Origin: a bacterium
GTDB lineage: Bacteria > Vulcanimicrobiota > Vulcanimicrobiia > Vulcanimicrobiales > SCRA01
Reading direction: 5' to 3'
DNA length: 36,204 bases
Assembly: GCA_004298675.1 (NCBI GenBank)
Contig: SCRI01000049.1
Span: 1 to 36,204, forward strand
Of this stretch, positions 894 through 36,204 are shown piece by piece. Each line of letters opens with the position of its first letter. Within the stretch, counting starts at the first letter, position 1. Below the pieces are notes generated by a model. The model saw only the letters and a program-made list of their open reading frames with translations. It was not told where the DNA came from and ran no database searches. Both the position numbers and the translations under genes were made by a program.

Positions 894-3800
894 ATGCGAG
901 CGATGATTGAGATGGCAGCCACACTCCTGCGCGATCCCGAGAAGCGGGGCGCGTTGGCGTTGACGCTCGCCCTGATCGCGCTTGCCGCCGGCTCCTCCGC
1001 GAGTGCAGGTACTACCCCCGACGCCTCGCGCGGTCTCTCACGGCCGGCGATCGCACAACCGGCGCGGCTGTTGACCCCGCCACCGCTCGTCGTGCCCGCG
1101 CCCGGCGGCACGTCCTCGGCAGCCCGTCCGCTGCCACCATTGCCCCCTCCGCCGGTGGCGGGCGGCGCGGTGCGTCGCCCACGCTCGGCGAGCGGCGCTA
1201 CCTTCACGGTCGCGCCCGTCTCGGGCTGCAGCGGCAACGCGAGCAGCACCGTCTTTCCGGTTGGCTGTGTGCTGCAGGTTCAAGCCGTCAGCCTCCCCAC
1301 GACGGGAAACCATCAAGACTATATCGTGCCCGCGTGGAACGGCACACCGAGCACGATGGGCGGCTCCTACTCGGGGGCTACGGGCGGCGTCGACTACATC
1401 AGCATCGTGCACTACGGCACGTTCATCGTGGCCTCGCTAAATCTGACGACGAATCAGTGGGACGCCATCGTCTATCTCACGGCCGGCGTCTCCCTCTCGT
1501 TCGATACCTTCGGAGACTCATTCCTCAAGATTCCGCGGCATACGTTCACGGACGACGGCTCCACGCCGGTCTACATCAACGCAACTGGACTGACCACCTC
1601 GCACCATTACGTCGTCACTATCGAGAGCACGTCGGTCACTGGGCGTTGCGTCTTTATCGGGCCGACGCCGTCATCGCTTGGCACCAGCCTCTGTAATCCC
1701 AACACCTCGAACGTAACCGGCGCCAATCCAAACTCCTCGGGCAGCCTGACGGTCACGTGGACGCCGGCTGCGGGGCTCGGCTCCGGCACGTACTCGGTCT
1801 CGCTCTTCGACCAAGATCAGCAGCAGCCGGATTCGAACTACGGCGAGCGCATGGGGCAGCGGCAGATCGCCCTCGTAAGCCCGTCGAACAGCTCGCGCTG
1901 GAGCCTGGTGCCCACGGGAGGCAATCCATCGCCGAACCCGGCGCCGGCGGGAACGCCAAGCTCCGTCTTCGACTACGATGGCAGCTCCGATCAATCGGAT
2001 AAACAGATCACGGCAGCGGTGGGCAGTCTCGCAGCATCGCACGGATATATCGTCGCCGTTTCCGATCCCAATGGCGCGGTGCAGTATCATAGCACGATCA
2101 ATTCGAGCGGCGCCGGGACGCTCTCGTTCACGTGGCCGTTCTCAAACCAGCAGACGCCCTCGAACTATATCCAGAACGTGTATACGCTGAGTTTGCAGGA
2201 CGCGGCGACGAGCGGCGTTGTCACAACTGCGGCATTCCAGATTTTAGGATACAGCGCGGCGGTGCAGTTCACTTCGCCGCCGGGAACCGCGATCTCCATC
2301 GCCACCGGAAGCGTGACGAGCGGAATGCAGTTCACGAACAATGGCGCCTCCTCGTTTGGGACCAACAATGCCGATGCGCTGCAAGGTTTCGATCTCCTCA
2401 CGCCCGCAAAGGGCATGGTGCTCTCTCTCAACGGCAGCACGAGCTGTGGAACCAACTGCCAGACGCTTAACGTCGTCGACAGTCAGGGTCAGACCTGGGT
2501 CGCGACGAACGTCTGCCTTGGTGGGTGCGGGTCCGGCAACGCGCAGTACCAATTGACGCTGTTGCCGCAGACGCCAGGGCAGTCGCTGGCCGTCGGGCAG
2601 AGCATCGCGGTCTCAAGCATCACGTTCACGGATGCGCCCGGCGGGCATTGCACGACCAGCGGCTGCGCGCTGACCACAACCATCCTACCCGTCAACGGCT
2701 TGACGTGGTCGTCTTCAACCTCGACTACGGCGGCCAATCTCATCTATCTGACCAACGGAAGCGGCACCAGTTACGCCGGCACCGGGCATATCGCGCTGAT
2801 CGGCTACGACCAGTACGGTACGACAACCGCCGGGCCGGAGGGGCACTACTATACACCACGCTTCAAGCAGGCGGTATACGAAAGCGTTCCCTCGTTCCCG
2901 GCGCAGGCCCAAGACGTCTTCGCCTATACGGTGAGCAACACGTCGAGCGCCGGCTCGGGCTCTATCACAAAGCTGCAAGTGACGCTGCCCGCATCGTTCA
3001 ATAACACGAATGCACAAGTCGACGGCGGTTCGCCCGCCAACTGGAGCGTGATCACGTGTCCGACGAGCCAGCCGGCCAACGTCATGTGCTTTGCGGCAGG
3101 AGGTGGTAACACCGGTATCGCGCCCGGCACGAACCAGACGTTGTGGTTCGACGTGAACGCACCAACGAGCTCGTTCTCTTTCACCGACGTCTTGGGGCAA
3201 GCCATCACGCCGTCGAGTTTCACCATCACAGCCGACGGCACGTCCACCGTCTTCGTGGGATCGACCAATCCACAAACCGTCGATAGCACTGCGCTAGCCT
3301 CCTACTCGCTGCTCTCGAATCTGATGACTGGGCAGTTCTCGCCGAGTTCCGTCGGTACGGGCAGTCATGCGGTCAGCCTCACGCTGCAGAACACGTCGAC
3401 ATCGCAGGATCCGTTTCCCGACTATCTCGACGCCGTCGTCATTCAGTTGCCCACAGCCAATTCGCTGTCAAGCATCACCACGAGTACACCGGGCTGGATC
3501 TACGAGGGCACCACCAGTCCAGGCGGCGGCTATACCGACTACTGGTTCGGCGTCTGCTCGACTCAAGCGACCAGCGGCAACACACCGCCCAACGACGGCC
3601 TTCCGGCATGCACGACCGCGCAGGAGCAGAGCGCGTTGGTTCCCGGCGCGACCCTGACCGTATCGGCAACGATCAACGCCGGTACCTCTCCCGGGACCAT
3701 TCAGGCCGCGGCCTTCGCCCATGGGGCCAACGGTGGCGGCTGGTCGAACTATCAGTACGGCGGCGGAAGCGGAACGACGTTCTCGCTGACGGTCAGCTCG

Positions 3801-26164: not shown

Positions 26165-26197
26165 TGCCAAACTATTGGCACGCCCGTGGCCTATTCT
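26165..26197 (+). promoter_or_regulatory. Palindromic promoter element, copy A
   Basis: TGCCAAACTATTGGCA (26165-26180) is followed by CGC and, 11 bp after the palindrome, by TATTCT (26192-26197). Transcription would begin at about 26204, exactly the ATG of the next gene, so the mRNA may be leaderless. The same arrangement occurs at 27358-27390 (minus strand) and 33776-33808. Confidence 0.6.
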
Positions 26198-27357: not shown

Positions 27358-27390
27358 ATCATCCGCCTCGTGCGTGCCACCAGTTTGGCA
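27358..27390 (-). promoter_or_regulatory. Palindromic promoter element, copy C
   Basis: On the minus strand, TGCCAAACTGGTGGCA (27375-27390) is followed by CGC and, 11 bp after the palindrome, GATGAT (27358-27363), a weaker -10. The start point near 27351 would leave about 10 nt carrying GGGAGG before the ATG at 27341. It lies in the divergent gap with the WYL regulator gene. Confidence 0.6.
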
Positions 27391-27438
27391 CAGTAGCCGG
27401 ACAAGGGACCGGGGCGGCCGGTTGCCAACGTCGTGGGC

Positions 27439-28455
27439 ATGGGTGCTGCTATCGTGACGCCGGGAAACGGCGATGGCGCGGATGCCCCCAGCGCCTCCAC
27501 CGTCCGCAAGCTCATGCTGTTGGTGTGCTTGATGCGTCTTGGACGCGTGTCGATGGCGCATTTTCTCGAGCGCTTCGACGTTTCCGAGCGCAGCTTCAAG
27601 CGCGATCTCAAACACGTGCGCGAGTTGGCCAAGGAAGCGGGCTTTGTGATCTCGCCGATTCACGACGGTATCGTGACGATGACGCTGCCCAGCGGCGGCG
27701 GTTTGGCGCTGCAGATCGACAAAGGGCGCCGCGACGTGGAGCAGCTGTTGGATACGTTGGCACGCGTGTTGGGTGAGCCCGTCGGGCGGCAACTCAAGGG
27801 CGTGCGTAGCGACGACGATGACGCCGGTGGGGGCCTGCTTTCACGCCCCTTCTTGCACTTCGCGTTTCCCGCGCTGGTGGGCGACACGTGGGTGGCCGAC
27901 GTGTACGATGCGCTGGCGAAGATCTGGAACAAAGGCGCATATGCGCGCTTCATGTATCCCAAGCACGATCGTCCACGCGGCGTGGAGCGCTTGGTGGAAC
28001 CGCACGCGGTAGTGGCGCGCGCGGGGCGCTACTATCTGATCGGTTTTGCGAAGGTGGCGAAGGGCTGGCGCTATTTCGCACTGGATCAGATCTTGAGCAA
28101 GCCGCAGCCCGCGGGAAAGATCGTCAAGCCGCACGAGTTGCCGGAGCACATCGGATTGGACGACTCGATCGGCATGATCATCGGCGACGACAAGACCAAG
28201 CGCATGGCCGTGACCGTGGAACTAGCGTCGCCGATCGCGCGCTCGGCGGTGAGCCGGCGCTGGCAGCACGACCAGGAAACGCTGCTGCACGAGGACGGGA
28301 GCGCGAGCATCACGCTGCACGTGACTGACGTGGATGAAGTGGTGCGCTGGGCGCTGGGCTTTGGGGGGGCGGCCCGTATTACGTCCCCGCCGGAGGCAAT
28401 GGCGCGAGCGGCACAAATGCTGGCGACGATGGCGGCGCAGTACCGCGAAAGCTAG
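27439..28455 (+). CDS. WYL-domain transcriptional regulator
   Basis: A 338-residue regulator of the YafY/PafBC type. An N-terminal winged-helix DNA-binding part (residues 23-70: LMLLVCLMRLGRVSMAHFLERF, then DVSERSFKRDLKHVRELAKEAG) is followed by a WYL domain with the hallmark AGRYYLIGFAKVAKGWRYFALDQI and a C-terminal WCX region ending ALGFGGAARITSPPEAM. WYL domains bind ligands such as nucleic acids or nucleotides, and the regulators often control DNA-damage or phage-defence genes. Start choice is between GTG 27433 and ATG 27439, neither with a strong SD. It sits next to copy C of the palindromic promoter element, so it is the natural candidate to bind it (inference), and it precedes two nuclease genes. 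Confidence 0.88.
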   Translation: MGAAIVTPGNGDGADAPSASTVRKLMLLVCLMRLGRVSMAHFLERFDVSERSFKRDLKHVRELAKEAGFVISPIHDGIVTMTLPSGGGLALQIDKGRRDVEQLLDTLARVLGEPVGRQLKGVRSDDDDAGGGLLSRPFLHFAFPALVGDTWVADVYDALAKIWNKGAYARFMYPKHDRPRGVERLVEPHAVVARAGRYYLIGFAKVAKGWRYFALDQILSKPQPAGKIVKPHELPEHIGLDDSIGMIIGDDKTKRMAVTVELASPIARSAVSRRWQHDQETLLHEDGSASITLHVTDVDEVVRWALGFGGAARITSPPEAMARAAQMLATMAAQYRES

Positions 28456-33775: not shown

Positions 33776-33808
33776 TGCCAGACTGTTGGCACGCTTCTAT
33801 CGTATAGT
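33776..33808 (+). promoter_or_regulatory. Palindromic promoter element, copy B
   Basis: TGCCAGACTGTTGGCA (33776-33791) is followed by CGC and, 11 bp after the palindrome, TATAGT (33803-33808), a good -10. Transcription would start near 33815 and leave about 36 nt with GGAGG ahead of the ATG at 33851. It matches copies A and C in sequence, orientation to the gene and spacing. Confidence 0.65.
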
Positions 33809-33850
33809 GGACGGACAGACGCTCATGTCACCTTATTTTTCGGAGGATCT

Positions 33851-34408
33851 ATGCAGCTCAAACTCTCTTGGTACGCCTTGCTTCCTCTTGTTCTCGCCGC
33901 GTGCGGCGGCGGAGGAGGAGGTGCGGCGGCAACGCCGGGTGGACAGCCGTCTTCGGGCGCAAGCCCGAGCGTCAGCGGCGACATGATGGCGATTGCTCCG
34001 AGCCGCGGCTGGAACTACCATGGTTCCCTTAATGGCCAAGCCGTTACCGTAACGCTCTATGCCGACCCCACGCAGGTTAATGGCACGACGAGTCTGGTGA
34101 TGTTGTCTGCGGCGGGGACGCTCAGTAATGCGACAGGTGGGGTGAAGGACGGCGCGATGACGGTGGAGCCGACAAGCGCGGGTGCTACGGTCAACACGTA
34201 CACGATCTATAACATCGACGGTACGATCTATTCGAACGGCGGACTGCCGTCACCGCAGTTGGTGCCCTCCACGCTCACGCAGGGTCAAACGTTCTCGCCG
34301 TATGTTGGGATGAGCGCGACGGTAACCAGCGTCGGCGCGGTGCCCGGTGCCTCGGCTTGCGTGAGTCCCGCCACGGGCGCGAGCGTGCAATATTCGTATC
34401 TCGGGTAG
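33851..34408 (+). CDS. Lipoprotein, ending at an in-frame TAG
   Basis: A 185-residue lipoprotein: basic start, hydrophobic ALLPLVL and lipobox LAAC at about residues 15-18, followed by a Gly/Ala-rich linker and a beta-rich domain (WNYHGSLNGQAVTVTLYADP, TVNTYTIYNIDGTIYSNGG). It has GGAGG 4 nt upstream of the ATG and is driven by copy B of the palindromic promoter. The TAG at 34406-34408 interrupts a frame that continues with the same character for 72 more codons, so the natural protein is probably about 258 residues long. The gene is either a recent nonsense mutant or is read through. Function is unknown. Confidence 0.75.
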   Translation: MQLKLSWYALLPLVLAACGGGGGGAAATPGGQPSSGASPSVSGDMMAIAPSRGWNYHGSLNGQAVTVTLYADPTQVNGTTSLVMLSAAGTLSNATGGVKDGAMTVEPTSAGATVNTYTIYNIDGTIYSNGGLPSPQLVPSTLTQGQTFSPYVGMSATVTSVGAVPGASACVSPATGASVQYSYLG

Positions 34409-34627
34409 ACGTATCAGATCTCATACGTGCCCGGTTGCGGCATGACGCAGTACGTCGGCAACCACGGTGAGGTCTTTACGCTCGCCTCGATCGGCAGCTA
34501 TCCGCAACTCGGAACACTTGGTGACGTCCGGCACATGTCGTCGCTGACGCTCTTCGACACCGTGAAGTCGGCGGCGCGCATCCTTGCGGCGCACCAGATG
34601 TGGCAGTCGTCGTTTCCACGGCGGTAA
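34409..34627 (+). pseudogene. In-frame continuation of the lipoprotein after the TAG
   Basis: The frame of the lipoprotein continues uninterrupted for 72 codons to TAA at 34625-34627. The join reads YSYLG, stop, TYQISYVPGCG, with the same Tyr-rich beta pattern on both sides, followed by YVGNHGEVFTLASIGSYPQLG and a helical end (DTVKSAARILAAHQMW). No ribosome site precedes the ATG at 34427, so independent translation is unlikely. A single CAG (Gln) or TGG (Trp) to TAG change would explain it. Confidence 0.6.
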
Positions 34628-34767: not shown

Positions 34768-34920
34768 ATGCAAGGTCTTCGTGTTTTCCATAGTGTCGGT
34801 GAGGCCTTACGCGCGGGGTTCGAGATAGCCGACCGCACCGCCAACGGCTATCTCGCCCGCATCCGAACCGCACAGGGTTGGGCAATGGCGATCGTAGAGG
34901 TGGCATCGGCTTCGGAGTAG
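34768..34920 (+). CDS. Small ORF (50 aa), function unknown
   Basis: A 50-residue frame, MQGLRVFHSVGEALRAGFE..., preceded by GGGAG 9 nt upstream of the ATG. It is amphipathic, with a basic/aromatic middle (NGYLARIRTAQGWAMAIVEV) and no membrane segment. It ends 73 bp before hisS. No family is recognised. The ribosome site and sensible composition support it, but the short length leaves doubt. A leader-peptide role for hisS is unlikely because it contains only one histidine. Confidence 0.45.
   Translation: MQGLRVFHSVGEALRAGFEIADRTANGYLARIRTAQGWAMAIVEVASASE

Positions 34921-34993: not shown

Positions 34994-36204
<1,211 letters not shown>

What the first reader, a model, noticed from the sequence alone, without database searches (positions are those of the whole stretch)
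33851..34627. Lipoprotein gene interrupted by a single in-frame TAG
The frame ending at TAG 34406-34408 continues open for 72 codons with matching composition (YSYLG, stop, TYQISYVPGCG), and the downstream part has no ribosome site of its own. It is either a fresh nonsense mutation, a base-calling or assembly error, or programmed readthrough. Since the gene also carries the shared palindromic promoter, it is likely to be expressed.
Basis: seen in the sequence. Interest (0 to 1): 0.6.

Follow-up and report, generated by a model that had tools for sequence, protein, structure and literature searches.

The report
Lipoprotein gene with fresh nonsense mutation
A predicted surface lipoprotein gene in an uncultured bacterium carries one premature stop codon that none of eight related genes carry, so it is most likely a recently broken, dispensable gene, which is an ordinary event.

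Summary
The ATG frame at 33851 hits TAG at 34406-34408 and runs on, open, for 72 more codons to TAA at 34625-34627. Length alone is weak evidence: 20-25% of stops in this GC-rich window are followed by an open run that long. Homology settles it. All eight distinct relatives in Eremiobacterota genomes are full length, with a sense codon at the TAG (Gln in four; Leu, Thr, Tyr or Asn in the others). None ends there. Against the same-genus orthologue the 72 codons are 89% identical, have dN/dS about 0.11 and no indel. So the TAG interrupts a conserved C-terminus. Within the sampled species the stop is unique to this genome and looks young.

Nothing supports readthrough or recoding: RF1 is present, none of 43 tRNAs reads UAG, there is no pyrrolysyl-tRNA synthetase, TAG ends 7 of 11 other genes examined in the window, and no unusual downstream RNA fold was found. 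A congener with the same flanking genes lacks the gene entirely, so it is dispensable. Best reading: a recent nonsense mutation truncating an accessory lipoprotein. A consensus error or strain polymorphism cannot be excluded without reads. The shared palindrome upstream is real and conserved in a second species.

The parts
33776..33793 (+). Palindrome TGCCAGACTGTTGGCACG upstream of the lipoprotein gene; probable operator or promoter element
   Evidence: Identical 18-mer in front of the G002 orthologue; same motif upstream of two other genes in the window (26165, 27373) and of their G002 counterparts
33842..33847 (+). Shine-Dalgarno-like GGAGGA
   Evidence: Sequence; GGAGGA conserved in the G002 orthologue
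33851..34408 (+). Truncated lipoprotein ORF, 185 aa, ending at TAG 34406-34408
   Evidence: lipobox Cys18 and the region after it conserved in the homologues
34406..34408 (+). Premature in-frame TAG; sense codon in all eight distinct homologues
34409..34627 (+). Severed C-terminal 72 codons plus the original stop TAA; carries the conserved YVPGCG motif
   Evidence: 89% aa identity to the G002 orthologue, dN/dS about 0.11, no indel; homologous in all relatives

Best explanation
The locus is an accessory Eremiobacterota lipoprotein gene, originally 258 codons from 33851 to 34627, that has acquired one recent nonsense substitution at codon 186. Translation stops at UAG through normal RF1 termination. 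The product is a 185-residue lipoprotein lacking the last three predicted beta-strands and the conserved second cysteine (in the YVPGCG motif), so it is probably misfolded or non-functional. Shown: the stop is unique to this genome among the sampled species, the downstream codons are homologous and show no sign of decay, no dedicated UAG decoder was found, and the gene is absent from one congener at the same locus. Inferred: that the base is real, that it is fixed in the population, and that the truncated protein is inactive.
For: Eight distinct homologues (G002, G056, G030, G055, G112, G126, G114, G128) all run through the position with sense codons (Gln in four, then Leu, Thr, Tyr, Asn). C-terminal identity to G002 is 89% against 82% upstream, and dN/dS is 0.11 against 0.13. 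If the tail had been unconstrained for 30% or more of the branch since G002, 20-29 nonsynonymous changes would be expected; about 10 are seen (P < 0.01). RF1 present; 43 tRNAs, none with anticodon CTA; no PylS over its cut-off; TAG is the stop of 7 of 11 other genes examined in the window. In G003 the flanking genes are syntenic but the whole gene is missing, so it is dispensable. No second intact copy in the genome. In the predicted structure of the G002 orthologue the truncation point is at the turn before strands 185-192, 196-201 and 207-215.
Against: There are no reads, so a consensus error or a minority strain cannot be excluded. The tail shows no extra decay, which would also be expected if it were still being made. 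Activity of the truncated protein is unknown because the function of the family is unknown.
Confidence: 0.8

Rival explanations
1. A consensus base error, or a minority-strain allele, in the metagenome assembly; the living population has an intact gene.
For: The assembly is a draft of 87 contigs. It is a single substitution with no other lesion in the gene. [quoted passage not shown]
Against: The other genes of the contig that could be compared with G002 or G003 (WYL regulator, HNH protein, HisS, glyoxalase-like) are uninterrupted. Assembly figures are good: 98.5% complete, 0.4% contaminated. The site lies 1.8 kb from the contig end, not at the very edge.
Confidence: 0.13
2. Tolerated or programmed UAG readthrough: most ribosomes stop, a fraction insert an amino acid and make the full-length lipoprotein.
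For: The downstream frame is intact and constrained. The position accepts Gln, Leu, Thr, Tyr or Asn in relatives, so most misincorporated residues would be harmless. The base after the stop is A, not the U that reduces readthrough (PMC5289835). Frequent readthrough of in-frame stops in bacteria has been proposed (PMC7918605).
Against: The stop is not conserved in any relative. No suppressor tRNA or PylS. No unusual RNA structure downstream (z -1.2 and -1.05). No Rfam match over a gathering score. A young mutation explains the intact tail without readthrough.
Confidence: 0.05
3. Two separate genes: a natural 185-aa lipoprotein followed by an independent 66-aa ORF starting at GTG 34427.
For: GTG and ATG codons exist in frame at 34427 and 34442.
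Against: No Shine-Dalgarno sequence. All eight distinct homologues encode both parts in one frame, and the family's conserved motif YVPGCG spans the proposed start.
Confidence: 0.01

Closest known systems
Nonsense substitutions in otherwise intact bacterial genes (young pseudogenes or population polymorphisms; Belinky et al. 2021, PMC7918605)
   Same: Single in-frame stop where relatives have a sense codon, with purifying selection on both sides of it
   Different: Their set was limited to stops shared by two or more species to reduce artefacts; here the stop is seen in one genome only
Programmed stop-codon readthrough or amber suppression, including pyrrolysine
   Same: Open, homologous frame beyond UAG
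   Different: No conservation of the stop, no decoder tRNA, no PylS, no stimulatory structure; TAG used as an ordinary terminator in the window
YmcC-like exported protein of Bacteroides fragilis (3fzx), best structural look-alike
   Same: Exported protein with a remote structural match; Foldseek E 1.1e-3
   Different: TM-score only 0.33-0.39, 11% identity; not enough to assign the family

Membership tests
Young pseudogene / nonsense allele | Orthologues have a sense codon at the stop | tested here: met
   Eight of eight distinct homologues
Young pseudogene / nonsense allele | Downstream sequence homologous to the orthologues' C-terminus | tested here: met
   89% aa identity to G002, no indel
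Young pseudogene / nonsense allele | Base supported by reads and present in the population | not testable with these tools
   No reads held; one genome per species
Young pseudogene / nonsense allele | Loss of function | not testable with these tools
   Inferred only: three predicted strands and a conserved Cys are lost; function of the family unknown
Programmed UAG readthrough or recoding | Stop conserved among orthologues | tested here: not met
   No relative carries it
Programmed UAG readthrough or recoding | UAG-decoding tRNA or pyrrolysyl-tRNA synthetase, or loss of RF1 | tested here: not met
   43 tRNAs without anticodon CTA; no PylS over cut-off; prfA present
Programmed UAG readthrough or recoding | Stimulatory RNA structure 3' of the stop | tested here: not met
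   Fold z-scores -1.2 and -1.05
Programmed UAG readthrough or recoding | Full-length product detected | not testable with these tools
   No proteomics
Bacterial lipoprotein | N-terminal signal with lipobox and invariant Cys | tested here: met
   Leu-Ala-Ala/Ser-Cys, Cys18 invariant in the alignments
YmcC-like exported protein | Same fold | tested here: inconclusive
   Foldseek E 1.1e-3, TM 0.33-0.39 on a model of mean pLDDT 65; no Pfam or NCBIfam match over cut-off

The most novel reading that the evidence does not exclude
The UAG is a reversible on/off or dosage allele: the lipoprotein is kept low by leaky readthrough at a position that tolerates many inserted residues, and the population alternates between stop and sense alleles.
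Probability: 0.04. Interest if true: 0.45.

Novelty: new member of a known kind. Interest (0 to 1): 0.12.

Why it matters
Little by itself. It shows a small accessory lipoprotein family of Eremiobacterota interrupted in one genome and absent at the same locus in a congener, which suggests it is dispensable. Annotation should treat 33851-34627 as one interrupted gene rather than two ORFs.

Tried and rejected
Genetic-code reassignment: rejected. Pyrrolysine: rejected (the two weak hits are below the cut-off, and such weak hits ring in most control genomes). Downstream RNA element: nothing convincing. A backup intact paralogue in the genome: none. Known protein family: none in Pfam or NCBIfam over cut-off; the weak PDB sequence hits to a protease are chance-level. 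Branch order of the four congeners from hisS: unresolved, so I do not claim which lineage is sister to the window genome.

Full report
What is there. The window is a complete contig (C34, 36,204 bases) of a 3.03 Mb draft genome, 98.5% complete and 0.4% contaminated. Named records for four of its more distant relatives are Candidatus Eremiobacterota MAGs; the same-genus record is titled only 'bacterium isolate FW021_bin.48'. The ATG at 33851 follows GGAGGA and opens a lipoprotein frame (MQLKLSWYALLPLVLAAC) that reaches TAG at 34406-34408. The same frame then runs 72 codons to TAA at 34625-34627. In this 66% GC sequence 20-25% of stops are followed by an open run at least that long, so the open frame alone is weak evidence.

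Orthologues decide. A protein search of 61 related genomes found a same-genus full-length orthologue (G002, 83% identity, 257 aa, no stop) and three more distant ones. A profile search of 149 genomes of the phylum added four. In the alignment of all eight distinct homologues every one continues through the TAG position with a homologous C-terminus (YVPGCG in seven, VPYCG in G128). The codons at the position encode Gln in four, and Leu, Thr, Tyr and Asn in the others.

Age. Between the window and G002 the 72 downstream codons are 89% identical in amino acids (82% upstream), with dN/dS about 0.11 (0.13 upstream), no frameshift and no other stop. A simple Poisson estimate rejects neutral evolution of the tail for 30% or more of the branch (about 10 nonsynonymous changes seen, 20-29 expected, P < 0.01). 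Either the stop is recent, or the base is not real, or the tail is still made.

Readthrough. RF1 is present. All 42 tRNA places found by the covariance model were read; ARAGORN names 43 tRNAs and none has anticodon CTA. There is no pyrrolysyl-tRNA synthetase over its cut-off. Seven of eleven other genes examined in the window end with TAG, as do two of the family's own homologues, so TAG terminates in this group. Downstream folding is ordinary and Rfam finds nothing above its gathering scores. The position tolerates many residues, so incidental readthrough could still give a working protein, but nothing points to a programme.

Dispensability. In congener G003 the same neighbours (PNPOx-like, glyoxalase-like, a conserved 50-aa ORF, hisS) are in the same order, but no part of the lipoprotein gene is detectable; about 150 bases lie where the window has about 980. 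The family is patchy: a full-length-type match in 9 of 149 genomes of the phylum, this one included (the remaining matches are short and confined to the N-terminal part). I found no intact second copy in the window's genome.

Protein. No Pfam or NCBIfam family matches over cut-off. The AlphaFold2 model of the G002 orthologue (7 sequences, mean pLDDT 65; block means 83-93 over residues 141-210) is mostly beta. The TAG falls at the turn before strands 185-192, 196-201 and 207-215 and before the invariant Cys195 (G002 numbering). Truncation would remove about half of the best-predicted region. The best structural look-alike, the YmcC-like 3fzx, has TM-score 0.33 only, so no function is assigned.

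Promoter. The palindrome TGCCAGACTGTTGGCACG at 33776 is identical in front of the G002 orthologue. The motif TGCCA-N6-TGGCACG occurs four times in the genome, three of them on this contig, each upstream of an ORF; the G002 counterparts of the other two genes also carry it. One site lies between a WYL-domain regulator gene and a divergent ORF, so that regulator is a candidate binder (inference).

Verdict. A recent nonsense mutation in a dispensable accessory lipoprotein gene (0.8), with consensus error or strain variant as the main rival (0.13). Ordinary.

Noticed in passing
26165-26182, 27373-27390, 33776-33793: Palindrome TGCCA-N6-TGGCACG upstream of three ORFs (26204 +, 27341 -, 33851 +), four copies genome-wide, conserved in front of the corresponding genes in same-genus genome G002. 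One copy lies between a WYL-domain regulator gene (27433-28455) and the divergent ORF, suggesting a small regulon of that regulator.
   Followed up: partly
34768-34920: Conserved 50-aa ORF (MQGLRVFHSVGEALRAGFEIADRTANGYLARIRTAQGWAMAIVEVASASE) between the lipoprotein gene and hisS, present in G002 and G003; likely a real small protein gene.
   Followed up: partly
L096 (G003:C43) 2457-3506: In congener G003 a glycosyltransferase-like ORF sits between the 50-aa ORF and hisS and also has a TGCCA-N6-TGGCACG palindrome about 100 bases upstream (2337), hinting that genes are swapped in and out at this locus.
   Followed up: no
36086-36202: The hisS sequence at the contig edge is repeated with 100% protein identity at G000:C86:16768-16884, so contigs C34 and C86 probably join there.
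   Followed up: no
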